Below, in pieces: positions 11,410 to 61,313 of a stretch of DNA of 64,000 nt. The notes beneath the pieces were generated by a model. That model was given only the letters and a program-made list of their open reading frames with translations. It did not search any database and had not been told where the DNA came from. Where the stretch lies: IMG/VR virus record IMGVR_UViG_3300043465_001479, positions 1 through 64,000 of that record; one strand, written 5' to 3'. The number at the start of each line of letters is the position of its first letter. Positions within the stretch are counted from its first letter, which is position 1. The translations under genes and the position numbers were made by a program. Origin of the DNA: a virus.

Positions 11410-12468
11410 TCAGTGAATTCCCATTGCGTTTGGTGATCCAAGAGTCTCAGCCAACTCCAAAGCAGACAGCTCGTCCGGGTCGCGGTTCATCGGAATCTTC
11501 GCGATGCGCGTGGGGATGCGCGTGAGCAGGACGTCCTTCATCCGGTCTGCGGCCTCCATCCCGGGGGTGTCACCGTCAGGGAGAATCACAATGTTCTTGA
11601 AGAAGCGAACGAGCTTCTCGATCTGGATACGGCTGATGTGCGTGCCCATGATGGCGACGCCTTGGTAGCCGTGCTGCCAGAGGTGAATCGCGTCGAAGAA
11701 GCCCTCGACAATGACGCCGGTTCCCTCGCCGCCCTCCTTGAGGCGGACCTCCCCGTAGAGGTAGCGGTCACGCTGGAAGCCAAGAGAGTGTAAAAACTTT
11801 CGTTTGCTCTCCCCTTCAAGTGAACGACCGGAGATGCCTACAAGTCTTTTTTTGCAGTCTCGTATGGGGATGGCAATTCGTCGAGCTTGCCGATGCCAGC
11901 GGAACTCCCAATCGGCGATGGACTTCTCATCCAGCCCGCGCCCCTTGAGGTAGTCAAAGGATTCACCATCGAGAGGATCGAACGCCTGCAGGTCACCATC
12001 CGCCAAGACCGTCTCCGGCACGTCGTAGGCGTAGCCAAGCGCCGCCTGCGCGGTCTTCGCAGAGAGCCGGATGCCACCCACTTCCATCGGACCCGTTGGG
12101 CGCTTCTCGGCGCGCTCCAGCGCAGCCTTCAGCAGGTCGGTCGAGGACAGAGAGTCCCGGTCCTTTGCCAGAACCCACTGGAAAATGTCGGAGAACGCTG
12201 TGGTGTCATGGCCTCCCGCCACCATCAGGGCTCGCAGCCGGGTCAGCAGCTCAATGACGGACCCTTTCGCATTGCAGGTGAAGCAGCGGTAGTGGCTGGG
12301 TCCGTCGTCGATGCGAATGCCAAAAGACGAACTCTTGTCCTCGCGCGTCTTGTGCAGCTTCGTGAAAGGGGCGAACGGGCAAGAGGCGTTCACCCAGCCA
12401 GACATATTCTGTCGGATGCGATTGCACCCAATCTTGTCCAATAGGTCGGTGATGTCCTCGGCTTGCAT
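11410..12468 (-). CDS. dnaG: DnaG-like primase (CHC2 + TOPRIM)
   Basis: The 352-residue product has an N-terminal zinc site: C30 and H39, with C62/C65 in YRCFTCNAKG (CHC2 pattern). Further on come a fold with RGLDEKSIADWEFRWH, VEGFFDAIHLW (TOPRIM Glu) and ILPDGDTPGMEAADRM (DxD). It synthesises primers for the DnaB-like helicase. The protein is shorter than cellular DnaG (~600), lacking the helicase-binding C-terminus. A TGTTAC element at 12,478-12,483 (minus) lies 10 bases upstream of the start. Confidence 0.93.
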   Translation of the reverse strand: MQAEDITDLLDKIGCNRIRQNMSGWVNASCPFAPFTKLHKTREDKSSSFGIRIDDGPSHYRCFTCNAKGSVIELLTRLRALMVAGGHDTTAFSDIFQWVLAKDRDSLSSTDLLKAALERAEKRPTGPMEVGGIRLSAKTAQAALGYAYDVPETVLADGDLQAFDPLDGESFDYLKGRGLDEKSIADWEFRWHRQARRIAIPIRDCKKRLVGISGRSLEGESKRKFLHSLGFQRDRYLYGEVRLKEGGEGTGVIVEGFFDAIHLWQHGYQGVAIMGTHISRIQIEKLVRFFKNIVILPDGDTPGMEAADRMKDVLLTRIPTRIAKIPMNRDPDELSALELAETLGSPNAMGIH

Positions 12469-12488
12469 GGAGGCCTCTGTAACACCGA

Positions 12489-12884
12489 TCAGGTGATGTC
12501 GATGACCGACTTGTTGACGCGCTTTCGTTCCTCAACAAGCAGCTGAACGTAGAATTTGTCGAACCGCTTAGTTTTCGTGGGCCCGCCCGGTTCCCGGCGG
12601 TGAACGGAGTCCCGCTCCCGCCCGTAAGACGTGAGCGATATGGCTTCTCGGCTGCTCGACTCGGAGACCATACGGTACTTCTTGAGTTGAGCGAGGGCGA
12701 TGTCCATCGCAGCGTTGAACTTGGTGGGGTCGAAGTTGTCTGTGTTCGGAGAAGACTTCACCGGAACCTTGTTCCTGCTGTTCGCAGGACGAGCGCGGGG
12801 TAGGTCCGCGTTCAAGAAGATGGCGAGCACCATGTGCCGAAAAAGTAAGGGGTAGTTTGGAACCTCAAAGCCGTCGTCAGCCAT
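12489..12884 (-). CDS. Hypothetical protein in the replication cluster
   Basis: The product is 131 residues: a hydrophobic N-terminal helix (YPLLFRHMVLAIFLNADL), a basic Ser/Asn-rich middle, and a basic C-terminus with KTKRFDKFYVQLLVEERKRV. No family is recognised. It lies between the helicase and primase genes and carries one copy of the GGACCATAYGGTCC-type palindrome (12,665). Confidence 0.7.
   Translation of the reverse strand: MADDGFEVPNYPLLFRHMVLAIFLNADLPRARPANSRNKVPVKSSPNTDNFDPTKFNAAMDIALAQLKKYRMVSESSSREAISLTSYGRERDSVHRREPGGPTKTKRFDKFYVQLLVEERKRVNKSVIDIT
12665..12678. repeat. Palindromic repeat, GGACCATAYGGTCC family
   Basis: AGACCATACGGTAC, inside the 131-residue gene; the ten central bases ACCATACGGT are conserved. 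Confidence 0.6.
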
Positions 12885-12893
12885 CGTGTCCTC

Positions 12894-14192
12894 CTAGAAC
12901 AAGTCGCCGATGGGATCGTCGGCAGCCGCGTCGGGACCGCTCGGCACACCAGACGGAGCGAACGCGGGGGCTCCGCCGAAGTTCGCCTTCGGAATCTCAG
13001 AGAAGTCCATACGCTCGAAGTCCCAGTTGCACTCGATCTCTTCGCTCTCGCCTTCCCGCACCTTGAGAGGCTTGAAGGCCATGCGGCGGTTCTTCTTCAT
13101 CTCCTCGGTCTGGATGAGACCGAAGATGAGGTCGGCGTTCCAGCCAGCGACGTCGGTCATGGCGATGCTGTCCGCCTGCACCGTCTTGGCTTGGTTGACC
13201 TTCACCTCGCGGTTGAACTGCATGGTCGCCACGACTGCGGCTTTGCTGCGCTTGGCGATACGCTTCAGCTCGTCAAAGACGTTGGCGGCTCGCTCGGTCC
13301 GGGTGAGCCCGTGGACCTTCAGCAGGTACGCACCGTCGACGATCACGAGGTCCGGCTTCTCGTCCATCACAATGCCTGCGAACGAGTCCATGCTGAAGTC
13401 GAAGTCGCCGCCAACGATGTTCAGGTTGGGGCTGTTCTCAATCGCCTTGATACCGTCACGAATGCGCTTCTCCGTGAACGAGTCGAGCTTGCCACGTCTG
13501 AAGTCGCCGTAGGGAATCCTGAACTTCGTGGCGAGGTAGCGCATCGCCATCGTCTCCTTCGACATTTCTGTCGTCGCGATGAGCACCTTCTTCCCCTGTT
13601 CCCAAGCCGTACCAGCGAGGAGGATCGCCGACCACGTCTTGCCGATACCCATGCGGGCCACGAACAGGACGAGGTCTTCCGGCCAGAGCCCCAGCGTCGA
13701 GTCGTTGATGGTCGGCCACGGAGTCTGGATACCGCGTTCGCCACGCTTGATCTTCTCGTAGTATTCAATGACCTTCCCGCCCAAGCCGGGAATGCTCTCG
13801 ACGAGAGCTGTCCGAGTGTCGAGCTTCCGCAGCGTGCGCAGCAGGTCTTCGACAGCAGCCTGACCCTTCGCAGGTTCGCCCAGATCGAGGATGCCGATGA
13901 GGTTCTTCACGCCCGCGTGAAGCATCCCGTGAAGCTTGCGGTCGTAGGCTGCGTTGATGAGGTACGGCAGCGGGTCCGTCGGAGGGGGGACGATTACTCC
14001 GGTCTCGCGTTCAACGATCGAGAGCGACGGGAGGTCGTTGTAGGTCTTGTTGAAGTCGACCGTGAAGTCGAAGACGACCTTCCCGTCGCCTTCGAGGAGG
14101 TCAGCTCGGAAGCCGGTCTCCGCGAGGTGACGGAGGCTGGCCTTGCCACCAGCAAGAACTGCGGAGGCTAGCGACAAGTCAAGATCGGCCAC
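12894..14192 (-). CDS. dnaB: DnaB-like replicative helicase
   Basis: The 432-residue product carries a RecA-fold helicase C-terminal domain: TPWPTINDSTLGL, ARMGIGKTWSAI (Walker A, ~179-190), KVLIATTEMSKE (H1a-like), LVIVDGAYLLK (Walker B), and AVVATMQFNRE (H3). The N-terminal ~140 residues are helical, as in DnaB. It ends in an acidic DDPIGDLF tail. It works with the downstream DnaC-like loader and primase. Confidence 0.92.
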   Translation of the reverse strand: MADLDLSLASAVLAGGKASLRHLAETGFRADLLEGDGKVVFDFTVDFNKTYNDLPSLSIVERETGVIVPPPTDPLPYLINAAYDRKLHGMLHAGVKNLIGILDLGEPAKGQAAVEDLLRTLRKLDTRTALVESIPGLGGKVIEYYEKIKRGERGIQTPWPTINDSTLGLWPEDLVLFVARMGIGKTWSAILLAGTAWEQGKKVLIATTEMSKETMAMRYLATKFRIPYGDFRRGKLDSFTEKRIRDGIKAIENSPNLNIVGGDFDFSMDSFAGIVMDEKPDLVIVDGAYLLKVHGLTRTERAANVFDELKRIAKRSKAAVVATMQFNREVKVNQAKTVQADSIAMTDVAGWNADLIFGLIQTEEMKKNRRMAFKPLKVREGESEEIECNWDFERMDFSEIPKANFGGAPAFAPSGVPSGPDAAADDPIGDLF

Positions 14193-30909: not shown

Positions 30910-31122
30910 GTGACGTACCCCTACCCATCAATGGCGACCGAACCACCCAGCTCATCGGCAAGCGCCTTTGCAGGGTGCCCCCGAACGACAAAGAGAGAGG
31001 CTGCCCTCTCCCTTGTCATCGCTCTCAGCCGAGCCGGGATCATCGCCGGGATGGTTTTCGGACACGTAGCCGGTCGTGAGGCCAGCTACGCTTCCGAACC
31101 AACTATCCGAGCTGCCCCTTGA
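30910..31122 (+). CDS. Predicted single-span membrane protein
   Basis: GTG 30910, with GGAG 5 bases before it, is in frame and gives 70 residues. Residues ~35-58 (LSLVIALSRAGIIAGMVFGH) form a membrane span. It ends over the 3' end of the convergent patatin gene by 20 bases. The start is uncertain (30,892, 30,931 also possible). A lysis role cannot be shown. Confidence 0.52.
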   Translation: MTYPYPSMATEPPSSSASAFAGCPRTTKREAALSLVIALSRAGIIAGMVFGHVAGREASYASEPTIRAAP

Positions 31123-31897
31123 GGTGAGCCTTCTTGATGGCCGCGCGCCCCTCCAGAAGCATCTCACGGACTTCCTTCTCGCCCATACCGAGGTTGAGAC
31201 CGTCCGCCTTGGTGTCGAGCATGATGACCTTGGCCCAGTTGGCGTCCTCGATGTGCTCGCGGTCTTGCGCTGCCAGCATGTTGCTGATGGTGCCCTCTGC
31301 GCGATCGATCTTCGTGAACGGCGGCTTGCGCGGCTTCGCTTCGTTGGGGCTGCGGACCTTGAGGCCCAACACGGGAACATCGTCGTAGGGATTTGCCCAG
31401 CCCTCGTAGTCAAGCGCAAAGTTCATGCGGACGCCGCCATCCTCGTAGAGGTCGCCGTCGATCTCAGCCATGTCGAAGATCGGGAGACACATGCTCGCGA
31501 ACAGCCGGATGGGGAGGTCGCCCGACGTCCAGACCTTCGACTCCCCCTTCGTCCAGTTTGTTGTGACGATGTGCAGCTTTGAGTGACCGTCTTCGACTTT
31601 CGGGTGGAGGTGCTTCTTGAAGACCTTGAGCAGCCCTTCCTTCGTGTAGAGCCCCGCCTGACCTCCGAACGGAAACCAGTTCTTCGTAAGGAACGTGCTG
31701 GGGAGGAGGGTCAGCGCCAGCGACTCCAGCTCCGCGCTGGTCTTGAACTTCGCTGCAGCAGCAGCTGTGATCGCGCCACCTGACGCCCCGACCATCTCGG
31801 GGAACGTGAACCCCAAGTCCAGCAACTCGCAGACCGCGCCGATCTGAACCGGGTACCGCGTTCCAGACCCTGACAAGACGAGCTTGAGACGCTTCAC
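31103..31897 (-). CDS. Patatin-like phospholipase
   Basis: GTG 31897 with GGAGG upstream gives 264 residues. LVLSGSGTRYPVQIGAVCEL carries the oxyanion glycines; MVGASGGAITAA is the G-x-S-x-G nucleophile motif (~40-45); YEDGGVRMNFALDY supplies the catalytic Asp (DGG). Patatin-type enzymes release fatty acids from phospholipids. In a phage this might serve host-envelope remodelling or defence counteraction (inference). The enzyme has no signal peptide. Confidence 0.9.
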   Translation of the reverse strand: MKRLKLVLSGSGTRYPVQIGAVCELLDLGFTFPEMVGASGGAITAAAAAKFKTSAELESLALTLLPSTFLTKNWFPFGGQAGLYTKEGLLKVFKKHLHPKVEDGHSKLHIVTTNWTKGESKVWTSGDLPIRLFASMCLPIFDMAEIDGDLYEDGGVRMNFALDYEGWANPYDDVPVLGLKVRSPNEAKPRKPPFTKIDRAEGTISNMLAAQDREHIEDANWAKVIMLDTKADGLNLGMGEKEVREMLLEGRAAIKKAHLKGQLG

Positions 31898-34145: not shown

Positions 34146-34793
34146 ATGACGACCCAGAAGACCCGCGCCGAACACCAGACCCCCAAGTTCGGCATCACCT
34201 ACAACGACGCGATGAAAGAGGCGATGACGATCGCTGCCCGCGCCGCGCGTCGCCACCACAAGTGGGTGTCCTGCGGGAGCGACAAGGACGACCTGCTCGC
34301 AGCCGCCTACGAGGGAATCCTCCTCGCTTGGAAGGCGTGGAAGGGCCCCGAAGTGGTCTCGTGGTCGTTTGCCGCGTGGACCTATGCGGAGCTGTACGCT
34401 CGCCGCGAGGGGAACCGCCGCAAGTCCGTCGTGAGCACGGGCAGCGGCAGCTACTCGCTGCACAAGGGCCGTCAGGCGGTCCGTGACGACGCCCTGCTGA
34501 TGCAGAACGAGGACGGGGCTTGGGTCGACGCTGACCTCAAGGACGAACGCCCGCTTCCCTCCCAGCAAGTCGAGATGATGGAGACCCTCCGAGTGATCGG
34601 GGTCGCCCTCCGCGAAGCGATCCCCACTTGCGCGGGAGAGCAAGTCGCCCTCGCCCAAGACGTGATCACCCAACGTATTCTGATCGACGTTGCCCAGAGC
34701 GCGGCCAGCATCGCTGACAAGCACGGGGTGAGCAGTGCGACGGTCTACAAGGTTGAGACCGCGCTGCGCGGGGCCTTGCAGGCTGCTCTCTGA
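34146..34793 (+). CDS. Sigma-70-like RNA polymerase factor
   Basis: The 215-residue product starts at ATG 34146. Residues ~43-90 resemble sigma region 2 (DDLLAAAYEGILLAWKAWKG, SWSFAAWTYAELYARREGN). The C-terminal ASIADKHGVSSATVYKVETA (~187-206) is a region-4 helix-turn-helix. It may direct polymerase to phage promoters. The strong promoter in front suggests high expression. A role of regulator in general is certain only at the domain level. Confidence 0.8.
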   Translation: MTTQKTRAEHQTPKFGITYNDAMKEAMTIAARAARRHHKWVSCGSDKDDLLAAAYEGILLAWKAWKGPEVVSWSFAAWTYAELYARREGNRRKSVVSTGSGSYSLHKGRQAVRDDALLMQNEDGAWVDADLKDERPLPSQQVEMMETLRVIGVALREAIPTCAGEQVALAQDVITQRILIDVAQSAASIADKHGVSSATVYKVETALRGALQAAL

Positions 34794-34878: not shown

Positions 34879-35166
34879 ATGAACAAGAACAATACCGTCC
34901 GTCGCACCCTCATCCAGAACGTCGTCGCCCCCTCGATTCATGGCGCACTTGCTGCGGTCCCCGGGCTCGACCTCAACCGCGAAGAGGATCGACGCCGCAC
35001 GATGCGCGCGACGGTCCACACCGTCGCCGGTCTCCTGCTGGAGAAGGGAGCCAACCCCAACGAGCTTCTGCAAGCCTGCATCGAGGCGATCTCGAAGGAG
35101 ATGGAATCGCTGCAGGCGCAGCACGAGGGTGACGGCACCTTCCCACAGGCTGGAGCCAACGCCTGA
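34879..35166 (+). CDS. Small helical protein
   Basis: 95 residues (MNKNNTVRRTLIQNVVAPSI), helical, acidic C-terminus. No domain; one leader hairpin and an AGGAG site support expression. Confidence 0.75.
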   Translation: MNKNNTVRRTLIQNVVAPSIHGALAAVPGLDLNREEDRRRTMRATVHTVAGLLLEKGANPNELLQACIEAISKEMESLQAQHEGDGTFPQAGANA

Positions 35167-35298: not shown

Positions 35299-35331
35299 AA
35301 AGACCCCGGACCATACGGTGCCGGGGTCTTT
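35299..35331. terminator. Bidirectional terminator with a palindrome in its loop
   Basis: AAAGACCCCGG and CCGGGGTCTTT are perfect 11-bp arms; the loop is ACCATACGGTG, part of a GGACCATACGGTGC repeat. T-rich on both sides. It separates the plus-strand gene from the minus-strand lipoprotein. Confidence 0.85.
35308..35321. repeat. GGACCATAYGGTCC copy in a terminator loop
   Basis: GGACCATACGGTGC; the ACC/GGT bases extend the terminator stem. Confidence 0.7.
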
Positions 35332-35363: not shown

Positions 35364-36308
35364 TCAGCCACCCAAGGGAGGAACAACCACCGCAGGCACG
35401 CCGGGGCAGAGGATCATCGTGACCTCCACCTTCGGGTCGCACTGACGGAGTCCCAGCGTGTCGTCGTAGGCGTAGCCGTAGGCCGTGCTGTGACAGCCTG
35501 CGTGAACCGCCTTGACGTACTTGGTCTGCACCACGGGACCGGCGCTGCACTGAGCTGGAGAGACCGGAGGAGTCGGGCAGCAGTAGGGGGCAGGAGCGTC
35601 CGCAGACGGAGGCTGCTGGCCCTTGCCACCGAAGGTCGGGTACGTGAGCGCCGCGCACGGCGAGAAGCAGGCCCCGGCTTCCCCAGCGACGCGAAGGTCG
35701 ACAGCTGAAAACTCAGGGTGCTGCTGCGCGAGGCCCTGCGAGAGGTTTTCTGATGTCGGACATTGGTTCAAGTCGAGGCCAGAGCAATCCACATCCATGC
35801 ATCCGTTGGACTCGGTAGACGCTTCGATCCGGAACGGCAAAGTGAAGCCGTCGACAGCAGACGCGTTCCAGAAGGTGTTGGCGACTGGGTTCCCCTGAGC
35901 GGTCACCGCGCACTTCGTCTTGTCCTCAAGAGAGCAACCCCAGGTCGCTTCCAGTTTGGAGTCGACCGGCGGCGCGCATCCTGCGGGTGGGCACGGGGGA
36001 GACGACTGACCGACCTTGCAGTTGTTGCCGATGTCATCGCAGCCGGTCTTGGGCCAGTAGCGCACGGAGGGAAGACCCGCGTCTGGGATTGGGAACGTCG
36101 CCGTGTCGCCCTTGATGAGCTTCGTCACGTCAGGCGAGCCCGTGTGGCCCTGCTGCTGCACCCACACCGTGTCGGCGCACTGGTTGAGGATCTTGAGAGA
36201 GCGGCCCTCGGCCAGCTTCGGACCTGCGTCCGGAGCTGCGGGTGCCGGAGGTGTCGGGCACCCCGTGAAAAAGGCCGCGACCACGAGCACCGCATAGAAA
36301 ATCTTCAT
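35364..36308 (-). CDS. Thaumatin-like lipoprotein
   Basis: From ATG 36308 the product is 314 residues. A lipoprotein signal ends at MKIFYAVLVVAAFFTGC (Cys17), followed by a Pro/Ala linker. The rest shows the thaumatin-like order: ILNQCADTVWVQ, VRYWPKTGCDDIGNNC, a Cys-rich GQSSPPCPPAGCAP loop, NTFWNASAVDGFTLPF, MDVDCSGLDLNQCP, ACFSPCAAL, YCCPTPP, and YGYAYDD, the family's closing motif. About 20 Cys fit disulphides outside the cytoplasm. Plant relatives bind beta-glucans; a host-surface or superinfection function is inference. I am confident of the fold, not of the function. Confidence 0.85.
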   Translation of the reverse strand: MKIFYAVLVVAAFFTGCPTPPAPAAPDAGPKLAEGRSLKILNQCADTVWVQQQGHTGSPDVTKLIKGDTATFPIPDAGLPSVRYWPKTGCDDIGNNCKVGQSSPPCPPAGCAPPVDSKLEATWGCSLEDKTKCAVTAQGNPVANTFWNASAVDGFTLPFRIEASTESNGCMDVDCSGLDLNQCPTSENLSQGLAQQHPEFSAVDLRVAGEAGACFSPCAALTYPTFGGKGQQPPSADAPAPYCCPTPPVSPAQCSAGPVVQTKYVKAVHAGCHSTAYGYAYDDTLGLRQCDPKVEVTMILCPGVPAVVVPPLGG

Positions 36309-36346
36309 GGAAAACTCCGCACCTCGGAAATCGAGGTCGGCGGACC

Positions 36347-36565
36347 TTACCCTACGATCACGTCCGGGCGAAGGGCCTCGACGTCCACAGGTGGCTTCCC
36401 ACAGACACCGCACTTCGCGGGCGCTTGGCGGCAGTTGATGCTGACCCGATTGCAGCACCGAGCGGCCCACACGACCTCTTCCTTCTGCTCAAGGAAGAGT
36501 GGCAGCAGCAACAGTCGGACGATCGGGTCGTCGCGCAGAGGAACGGGTGTCTCCGAGTCGCTCAT
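36347..36565 (-). CDS. Small Cys-containing protein
   Basis: 72 residues (MSDSETPVPLRDDPIVRLLL); Leu-rich middle and C-terminal CGVCG plus other Cys (CCNRVSINC). ATGA overlap with the gene upstream. Confidence 0.68.
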   Translation of the reverse strand: MSDSETPVPLRDDPIVRLLLLPLFLEQKEEVVWAARCCNRVSINCRQAPAKCGVCGKPPVDVEALRPDVIVG

Positions 36566-36795
36566 CAGACCACCTCCGGAATTGGAATAACGTCGACGAT
36601 GTCAGGCGGGCAGATGACCGACAGCGTGCGCCCGTTGTCCCAGCGGATTCCAAGTTGCCATTCCTTGGAGACCCCAGATGGGCTCCGCTCAAAGACCGTG
36701 ACGGTGTGGACGGTCCCCTCAGTCCCGACAGGGATCGGGTCAGGGTCGTCAGGCATGTGGACGAGGCGGACGCGGTCACCTTTTTTCACGTTCAA
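36565..36795 (-). CDS. DUF4314-like protein
   Basis: 76 residues: KGDRVRLVHMPDDPDPIPVG, TEGTVHTVTV, and LGIRWDNGRTLSVICPPD match the DUF4314 pattern of small beta proteins in phages and plasmids. Function unknown. Confidence 0.8.
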   Translation of the reverse strand: MNVKKGDRVRLVHMPDDPDPIPVGTEGTVHTVTVFERSPSGVSKEWQLGIRWDNGRTLSVICPPDIVDVIPIPEVV

Positions 36796-36803
36796 GTGGC
36801 ACC

Positions 36804-37976
36804 TCAGAAGGGGAGGACGGTTGGCTTCTCGGGGACGTAGGGGGCGGGTGCTTTCGGCAGGTTTATGACCGGGGTGTGCGAGGTGATCATCGTCTGCTTC
36901 ACCGCCGCCGCCTTTATAGCCGCCTTCGATGCCGCCGCTGCGTCAGCGAGAGCTTGCGCGTTGTCGACATGCTTCATCACGCTCGCCATGTCTGCGCTGA
37001 TGGCCGCGACGTCGATGTAGGTCGGGGTCTTCTTGTAGACCTGCGTGATCAGGTCTGTGACCTGAGGAAGGTAGCTCGCGTCGCACATCCACGCCTTCGT
37101 TGCGGCGTCCCAGCTTCGATCCTTGTAGGGGATCATGTTCTTGAACCCCGCGATGAATGTCGCGTCGTAGGGCGTGTTGATCTTCAGGCTGTTCCCGTTC
37201 TTCTCGATTCGGCAGGTGGACACGGGGCCTCCGGGTGCTGGGGTTGCCTGCACTGTAACAGGCGTCAGCGTCGGCTTCAGTACCGCCGAGGTTGCGAGGA
37301 AGGCTTCCACCTCGACACGAGCATCCGCCAGTCCGACGGACATTGGGTAGTGCGTCTGGACGATGGTGGCGAAGGCATCGAGGTGCTTCGGGTCAACACC
37401 GAACATCCGACGACCCGGTTTCGGAGAGGGGAAATTCACCGCGCCAAGACTGTGGAGCTTATGACGTGCTGCTGGGCAGCGGGGACCGTCGACGAAGATT
37501 CGAGGGCCCTTTGATGTGAGGGGGTCGAAACGGACCACGGCATCCCCAGTAGCTGCCTCGCCGTTCCAGAGAGCCGCGACACCGAGGTACCCGAGCCATC
37601 GAGCGACTTCAGAGCAGGCTTTCAGCACCTTCCAGCGGGTGCTGTCGTAGCTCAGGATCTTCTCGATCTTGCGGATCGCGATGCGCCAGTCTGTCCCGTC
37701 GAGGTTCAGCGTGAGCATGCCGAGCAGGTCGGCATACGTTGCTTGCGCGTCGGGGGTGATGCTGGTGTCGGGGTTGATTGTCAGGAGCGCCATGAGCGCC
37801 TCTGGAGGGTTCGCTGGGATGCTGTTCGCGAGGAGCTTGTTGTCCTGCTTCCGGCAGATAGGACCGATGCCCGCCTCGATGGAGGCCATGTCCGTCAGGT
37901 CTTTCCGACACCGGCAGCACGATCGGCCTGTGTGCGACTTGAACTGCGGGGCGACATTGCTTGTGTTGATGTCCAT
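36804..37976 (-). CDS. Zinc-binding protein with C-terminal W-rich domain
   Basis: The 390-residue product opens with SCCRCRKDL and IEAGIGPICRKQDN, a DUF6011-like Cys site. The middle is helical. Residues ~265-325 (DATFIAGFKNMIPYKDRSWD ... KAWMCDASYLPQVTDLI) resemble the small 92-residue protein at 39,000 in the R-x-W-D / K-x-W pattern, as in SNF2-associated HARP-like modules. The C-terminus is Ala-rich. Unknown role. A GTTAC element at 38,013 precedes it. Confidence 0.72.
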   Translation of the reverse strand: MDINTSNVAPQFKSHTGRSCCRCRKDLTDMASIEAGIGPICRKQDNKLLANSIPANPPEALMALLTINPDTSITPDAQATYADLLGMLTLNLDGTDWRIAIRKIEKILSYDSTRWKVLKACSEVARWLGYLGVAALWNGEAATGDAVVRFDPLTSKGPRIFVDGPRCPAARHKLHSLGAVNFPSPKPGRRMFGVDPKHLDAFATIVQTHYPMSVGLADARVEVEAFLATSAVLKPTLTPVTVQATPAPGGPVSTCRIEKNGNSLKINTPYDATFIAGFKNMIPYKDRSWDAATKAWMCDASYLPQVTDLITQVYKKTPTYIDVAAISADMASVMKHVDNAQALADAAAASKAAIKAAAVKQTMITSHTPVINLPKAPAPYVPEKPTVLPF

Positions 37977-60923: not shown

Positions 60924-61313
60924 TCAGAGGCTGGCCTCTTTCACGAAGAGGGCGACGCGGGTGAGCCCCTTGTCCGTCATCCCCAGTTTTGCTGCCGACC
61001 CTTGCGATAGGTCGATGACTCGGTCTCCGGCGTAGGGCCCCCGGTCGTTGATGACCACCTCGACCGACCGACCGCTGTCGAGGTCGTGTACCACCACGAT
61101 GGTACCGAACGGCAGCGTCCGGTGGGCAGCCGTGGCTCCGGCGGCACGGAAAACTGCTCCAGAGGCCGTCAGCCGCCCGTCGAAGCCCGGCCCGTACCAA
61201 GAGGCAACCCCGGTGGAGAACGGGACTGGGTCCGATGAGGCGACCGGGTCCATATGGTCCGAGGCGAGAGGCGCCGCGAAAAGCAGCGCGAGCGAGGCAA
61301 CGGTTTTTCGCAT
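60924..61313 (-). CDS. RlpA-like double-psi beta-barrel protein
   Basis: 129 residues: signal peptide MRKTVASLALLFAAPLASDH; GVASWYGPGFDGRLTASGAV, AAHRTLPFGTIVVVHDLDSG, VVINDRGPYAGDRVIDLSQG match RlpA/DPBB, including the catalytic Asp in NDRGP. RlpA cleaves naked glycan strands or binds them. A phage copy could aid envelope modification; it is too short for a full lytic transglycosylase with SPOR domain. Palindrome copy at 61,247. Confidence 0.88.
   Translation of the reverse strand: MRKTVASLALLFAAPLASDHMDPVASSDPVPFSTGVASWYGPGFDGRLTASGAVFRAAGATAAHRTLPFGTIVVVHDLDSGRSVEVVINDRGPYAGDRVIDLSQGSAAKLGMTDKGLTRVALFVKEASL
61247..61260. repeat. GGACCATAYGGTCC copy
   Basis: GGTCCATATGGTCC, in the signal-peptide-proximal part of the RlpA-like gene. 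Confidence 0.72.

What the first reader, a model, noticed from the sequence alone, without database searches (positions are those of the whole stretch)
35364..36308. Phage-encoded thaumatin-like lipoprotein
The protein has a lipobox signal and the full order of thaumatin-family blocks, including the closing YGYAYDD motif and about 20 cysteines. Thaumatin-like proteins are mainly known from plants, fungi and animals, with fewer bacterial ones, and I know of none described in phages. It has its own terminator and lies on the opposite strand to its neighbours, as an acquired moron would. It might mask receptors, bind a glucan or alter the host envelope.
Basis: partly seen in the sequence, partly recalled or inferred. 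Interest (0 to 1): 0.86.

Follow-up and report, generated by a model that had tools for sequence, protein, structure and literature searches.

The report
Thaumatin-like lipoprotein carried by phages
Several otherwise unrelated bacterial viruses carry a gene for a lipid-anchored relative of the plant defence protein thaumatin, a family previously noted among viruses only in giant viruses of eukaryotes; what it does on the infected cell is not yet known, but a surface-blocking role is the most likely.

Summary
Window 35364-36308(-) encodes a 314-aa protein with a lipobox (FTG-C17) and a full-length Pfam Thaumatin match (E 2.4e-14). All 16 canonical cysteines are present in canonical order, and the profile and fold searches return thaumatin-like proteins (TLPs). 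The contig is a real tailed-phage fragment (109,966 bp): close relatives carry its sheath, portal, major head protein and polymerase. The gene is not a private moron. It is syntenic and under purifying selection (dN/dS 0.12-0.19) in every related contig found. Lipobox TLPs also occur in two other phage lineages that share almost nothing else with this one: 53% identity in a 37.9-kb contig, about 40% in a 152-kb contig. The gene has therefore moved between phages. No match exists in 50,697 annotated phage genomes or in PHROGs; known viral TLPs are from giant viruses. The function is inferred: an exported, lipid-anchored, disulphide-rich binding protein, most likely superinfection exclusion or receptor/glycan masking (about 0.4). 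The acidic cleft is partly degraded in two of three lineages, which argues against a conserved glucanase. The host is unidentified.

The parts
35364..36308 (-). thaumatin-like lipoprotein gene, 314 aa (stop codon included)
36255..36308 (-). lipoprotein signal peptide with lipobox FTG|C (residues 1-18, lipid Cys17)
   Evidence: lipobox kept in G002, G003, G004, G199, G200 homologues
36201..36254 (-). Pro/Ala-rich linker, residues 19-36, poorly conserved
35400..36197 (-). thaumatin domain, 16 canonical Cys plus extra pair C125/C134
35302..35328 (.). GC-rich hairpin between convergent genes, probably a terminator for both directions
   Evidence: sequence
36313..36340 (-). small hairpin just upstream of the Shine-Dalgarno GGAG, stem kept in three relatives; role unknown
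36347..36565 (-). upstream small Cys-rich ORF (72 aa), same strand
36565..36789 (-). upstream small ORF (74 aa), same strand
36804..37976 (-). upstream 390-aa ORF with DUF6011, same strand
34146..34793 (+). convergent neighbour, 215 aa, resembles sigma-factor region 2 by eye (no Pfam or PHROG match)
34879..35166 (+). convergent neighbour, 95 aa

Best explanation
Shown: an intact, selectively maintained thaumatin-family gene encoded by a tailed phage and shared by horizontal transfer with two unrelated phage lineages. Inferred: the protein is exported through Sec, lipidated at Cys17 and oxidised to eight or nine disulphides in the host envelope. There it works as an anchored binding protein, not an enzyme, occupying a surface structure (receptor protein or surface glycan) so that further phages cannot adsorb to the infected cell or its debris. 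That is superinfection exclusion or receptor masking, comparable in logic to T5 Llp or Ltp of TP-J34, but on a thaumatin scaffold.
For: Family identity. Phage context. Maintenance: dN/dS 0.12-0.19 and conserved synteny. Transfer: 53% TLP identity between G199 and the window clade, against at most 28% for their other shared proteins, and the only protein match between G199 and G200. Lipobox kept in all three phage lineages although the linker is not, so anchoring matters. REDDD cleft altered in two lineages (N148 in the window clade; N and G in G199), which favours binding over catalysis. Lipoproteins that block receptors are a known phage strategy (PMC9586334; PMC3952083).
Against: No experiment, no host, no receptor and no expression timing. 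At about 30 kDa it is probably much larger than known exclusion lipoproteins such as T5 Llp (described as small in PMC9586334). The G199 copy lies in a tail-fibre run next to a holin-like gene and an endolysin, which suggests late expression, whereas exclusion genes are usually early. Strong purifying selection is less expected for an arms-race blocker. PADLOC gives no match.
Confidence: 0.4

Rival explanations
1. Glycan-binding or glucan-cleaving envelope protein: it binds a beta-glucan or other polysaccharide of the host's matrix and helps spread or lysis, or shields a polysaccharide from depolymerases.
For: Plant TLPs include beta-1,3-glucan binders (own knowledge). R83, E120, D153 and D282/283 of the cleft are kept in the window clade and all five positions in G200. 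A weak match to GH64 beta-1,3-glucanase, which carries a related fold. The cyanobacterial homologue lies among GH19 and GH18 chitinase genes. The G199 copy is near an endolysin.
Against: One REDDD aspartate is Asn in the window clade, and a second is Gly in G199. The GH64 match is below cut-off. A lipid anchor on the producing cell is odd for a diffusible depolymerase.
Confidence: 0.25
2. Inhibitor of an enzyme: like the wheat xylanase inhibitor TLXI it binds and blocks a secreted host or competitor enzyme, for example a protease or glycoside hydrolase that would damage virions or the envelope.
For: TLXI (3g7m) is among the fold matches. The scaffold is known to be used for inhibition. The disulphide-rich fold would resist proteases.
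Against: Nothing in the sequence points to a target. TLXI is a small TLP with 10 cysteines; this is a 16-Cys type.
Confidence: 0.15
3. Virocell fitness gene: it protects the infected or lysogenic host against eukaryotic predators or fungi, as plant TLPs do against fungi.
For: The cyanobacterial homologue sits with CAP (PR-1-like), GH19, GH18 and astacin-like genes, a set resembling plant pathogenesis-related proteins.
Against: No integrase or lysogeny module was seen among the genes examined. A short lytic infection gains little from defence against predators.
Confidence: 0.1
4. Virion or tail-fibre accessory protein carried in the particle.
For: In G199 the gene lies inside a run of tail-fibre-like genes.
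Against: It has an export signal and lipobox in all three lineages. In the window clade it lies in the accessory region, far from the structural genes in G001.
Confidence: 0.06

Closest known systems
Thaumatin-like protein family (PF00314; PR-5 proteins of plants, with fungal, animal and some bacterial members)
   Same: Full-length profile match, 16 Cys in the canonical order, R/E/D/D positions of the cleft, closing AYxYxxDD block, nearest folds all TLPs
   Different: Lipid anchor; WPKTGC in place of WARTGC; PPCPxxGCxPP block; one cleft Asp replaced by Asn; an insert with an extra Cys pair shared with the G199 phage
Bacterial TLPs: Comamonas endophytica plasmid WP_231043898, Cyanomargarita calcarea, Legionella species (PMC4256840)
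   Same: 39-43% identity to the first two and the same subfamily motifs; the Comamonas frame also opens on a lipobox if started upstream of the annotated GTG
   Different: Cellular genes; the cyanobacterial one has an ordinary signal peptide; the Legionella ones were not compared here
TLPs of giant viruses (Tupanvirus, Feldmannia virus, Satyrvirus; EsV-1 in PMC2373305)
   Same: A TLP carried by a virus
   Different: Viruses of eukaryotes, only remotely similar; none from a tailed phage in that library
Phage superinfection-exclusion lipoproteins (T5 Llp, TP-J34 Ltp)
   Same: Phage-encoded lipoprotein destined for the host envelope
   Different: Unrelated scaffold and larger; exclusion not tested here

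Membership tests
Thaumatin family (PF00314) | Profile match above the curated cut-off over the whole domain | tested here: met
   54 bits against 27.4, profile positions 1-209 of 209; homologues 61.7-122 bits
Thaumatin family (PF00314) | 16 conserved Cys in the order that forms eight disulphides | tested here: met
   16 Cys invariant in eight homologues, including the adjacent CC, and compared with 2ahn; the pairing itself was not observed
Thaumatin family (PF00314) | Thaumatin three-domain fold | tested here: inconclusive
   27 best PDB matches all TLPs, then a gap from E 1e-3 to 0.16; but mean pLDDT only 43-49 and global rmsd about 12 A
Thaumatin family (PF00314) | Acidic cleft REDDD | tested here: inconclusive
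   R83, E120, D153, D282/283 kept, third position Asn148; variation also occurs in accepted members (PMC3048497)
Bacterial lipoprotein | N-terminal hydrophobic stretch ending in a lipobox Cys | tested here: met
   FTG-C17; FAG-C, LAG-C, VSG-C, LAS-C in relatives
Tailed-phage gene | Encoded in a genome with phage hallmark genes and conserved position | tested here: met
   Sheath, head, portal, polymerase in overlapping relative G001; synteny in four further contigs, two of which (G001, G002) look like the same virus
Superinfection-exclusion lipoprotein | Blocks adsorption or DNA entry of phages when expressed | not testable with these tools
   -
Superinfection-exclusion lipoprotein | Sequence similarity to known defence or exclusion families | tested here: not met
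   No match in PADLOC or PHROGs
Moron (independent, sporadic cargo gene) | Present in some relatives and absent in others at the same place, with own promoter | tested here: not met
   Present in every related contig found by the neighbouring genes; no promoter-like site found upstream

The most novel reading that the evidence does not exclude
Tailed phages have repeatedly recruited the thaumatin scaffold as a lipid-anchored, disulphide-locked surface blocker: a new scaffold class of superinfection-exclusion or receptor-masking lipoprotein passed between unrelated phage lineages.
Probability: 0.35. Interest if true: 0.75.

Novelty: new variant of a known kind. Interest (0 to 1): 0.58.

Why it matters
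It places a protein family known for plant defence in tailed phages, with evidence that it is maintained and exchanged. If it blocks receptors or glycans, it adds an unrelated scaffold to the phage exclusion toolkit, and plant TLP biochemistry (cleft mutants, glucan binding) could be used to test it directly. It also adds a bacterial subfamily of TLPs (WPKTGC / PPCPxxGCxPP) that may inform how TLPs spread among bacteria, eukaryotes and viruses.

Tried and rejected
Chimeric assembly or bacterial contamination: rejected, because the gene is syntenic in several contigs with the same phage neighbours. Recent moron: rejected for the same reason, and GC3 is typical for the phage (0.771 against a median of 0.780). 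Chance resemblance from Cys-rich composition: rejected, because order and spacing blocks match full length and 16 Cys are invariant. Single-sequence phmmer against PDB found nothing relevant; only the profile did. AlphaFold with 6-7 sequences gave poor models. Cyanobacteria were sampled and TLPs are rare there (1 of 194 and 1 of 149 genomes). Rfam and tRNA scans of the window were empty. A first, too strict pattern for the hairpin found nothing; a corrected one found it.

Full report
What is there. The ORF at window 35364-36308 on the minus strand starts with ATG, has a GGAG Shine-Dalgarno, and encodes 314 residues. Residues 1-17 are a lipoprotein signal (MKIFYAVLVVAAFFTGC), 18-36 a Pro/Ala-rich linker, and about 38-303 a thaumatin domain. 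Pfam gives PF00314 over the whole profile at E 2.4e-14, twice the cut-off in bits. A profile of the phage proteins and one bacterial relative finds ten solved TLPs (2ahn, osmotin, zeamatin and others).

Cysteines and cleft. Sixteen domain cysteines (44, 90, 97, 106, 111, 170, 175, 183, 214, 218, 243, 244, 254, 272, 290, 301) are invariant in eight homologues. In order they correspond to the sixteen of plant TLPs, including the adjacent CC. The pairing expected from thaumatin structures (own knowledge) would be 44-301, 90-97, 106-111, 170-290, 175-272, 183-214, 218-243 and 244-254. C125 and C134 form an extra pair in an insert present in the window clade and in G199. Against 2ahn the REDDD positions (motif: PMC3048497; residue assignment from own knowledge of osmotin) read R83, E120, N148, D153, D282/283. 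G199 has R, E, N, G, D, and G200 has all five.

Fold. Two AlphaFold runs with 6 and 7 sequences gave mean pLDDT 43 and 49, confident only in part of the N-terminal beta-strand region. Even so, in each run the 27 best PDB matches are all TLPs, followed by a large gap. Foldseek also uses residue similarity, so this is supportive and not independent of the sequence evidence.

The genome. The record is an IMG/VR virus contig of 109,966 bp. Its genes include a DnaB-like helicase, DNA primase, UvsX, a ParB-like nuclease, tail-fibre and virion proteins. The close relative G001 overlaps both ends of the contig and spans the 43 kb between them; that part encodes tail sheath, major head protein (phrog_138), portal, DNA polymerase and a weak terminase match. 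The virus is thus a contractile-tailed phage with a genome of roughly 150 kb. The head protein is at most about 38% identical to annotated phages.

Conservation. TLPs with 77-90% identity occur in four more contigs, at least three distinct viruses, at the same place between the same neighbours. Searches with the two flanking genes found the same contigs and no relative without the TLP. dN/dS is 0.12-0.19, like the neighbouring genes. GC3 is typical of the phage. The gene is the last of a same-strand run (37976 to 35364) facing two genes on the other strand. A hairpin with A and T runs on its two sides lies between the two units. The 'isolated moron' picture is therefore not right.

Spread. Motif and profile scans of IMG/VR found two further contigs. 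G199 (37.9 kb, L050) has UvsX, DnaB, a sigma factor and an endolysin; its TLP (53% identity) has lipobox VSGC and lies among tail-fibre-like genes. G200 (152 kb, L016) has a phage-type DNA polymerase and large tail-like proteins; its TLP (about 40%) has lipobox LASC. Proteome comparison shows the TLP as by far the most similar protein between G199 and the window phage (53% against 24-28%), and the only protein match between G199 and G200. In a small tree the window clade and G199 group together, while G200 falls apart from them near the cyanobacterial protein and the cherry outgroup. With nine sequences and long branches that suggests, but does not prove, two separate acquisitions. No match was found in 50,697 annotated phage genomes, PHROGs, NCBIfam or PADLOC.

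Outside phages. The nearest cellular relatives found are in a cyanobacterium (about 40%) and on a Comamonas plasmid (about 39%). The Comamonas frame opens on a lipobox upstream of the annotated start, so the lipoprotein form may predate its capture by phages. Searches of cyanobacterial genomes show the family is rare there. Legionella TLPs are in the literature (PMC4256840). Viral TLPs in the structure library come from giant viruses. The paper searches turned up no report of a phage TLP, with the limit that only open-licence papers are held.

Mechanism. Shown: family membership, lipobox conservation, phage origin, selection and transfer between phages. Inferred: export, lipidation, oxidative folding in the envelope, and a binding role. 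I favour superinfection exclusion or receptor/glycan masking (about 0.4) because a lipid anchor on the producing cell is conserved while the linker and part of the acidic cleft are not, and because phages are known to use lipoproteins this way (PMC9586334, PMC3952083). Glycan binding connected with lysis or matrix (0.25), enzyme inhibition as by TLXI (0.15), host fitness (0.1) and a virion role (0.06) remain open. The mixed neighbourhoods (accessory region in the window clade, tail/lysis region in G199) do not settle timing.

Limits. Host unknown. No deep alignment was available. The fold is supported but not modelled with confidence. The genome-contig collection could be scanned only once, so bacterial sources are under-sampled.

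Noticed in passing
window 31103-31897 (-): Patatin-like phospholipase gene (PF01734, E 1.5e-18), highly conserved in the clade (dN/dS 0.06-0.1), no match in annotated phages.
   Followed up: partly
window 60924-61313 (-): Small secreted RlpA-type lytic transglycosylase (TIGR00413, E 2.3e-34) with signal peptide.
   Followed up: partly
L014:1682-8158: Cyanobacterial cluster of CAP-like (by eye), LysM-GH19, TLP, LysM-GH18 and astacin-like LysM (by eye) genes, resembling a bacterial set of plant PR proteins (PR-1, PR-3, PR-5, PR-8).
   Followed up: partly
L016:7233-8837 (-): Protein with a vanadium-haloperoxidase-like C-terminus (PAP2/VCPO matches below cut-off) a few genes from the G200 TLP in a phage contig.
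   Followed up: no
window 35302-35328 and L004 downstream of its TLP: The terminator-like hairpin appears with its loop inverted in G003 relative to the window and the other relatives.
   Followed up: no
window 36313-36340: Small hairpin directly before the TLP ribosome-binding site, stem kept in three relatives with a one-sided wobble change; possible translational control.
   Followed up: no
L016:12215-13049: Peptide-chain-release-factor-like gene (by eye) in the 152-kb phage contig, seemingly in two frames (12215-12478 and 12585-13049).
   Followed up: no
L017:5713-6909: Annotated start of Comamonas WP_231043898 is probably too far downstream: the open frame upstream holds a lipoprotein signal (MFRIRLLCVLSCLLWATAC).
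   Followed up: partly
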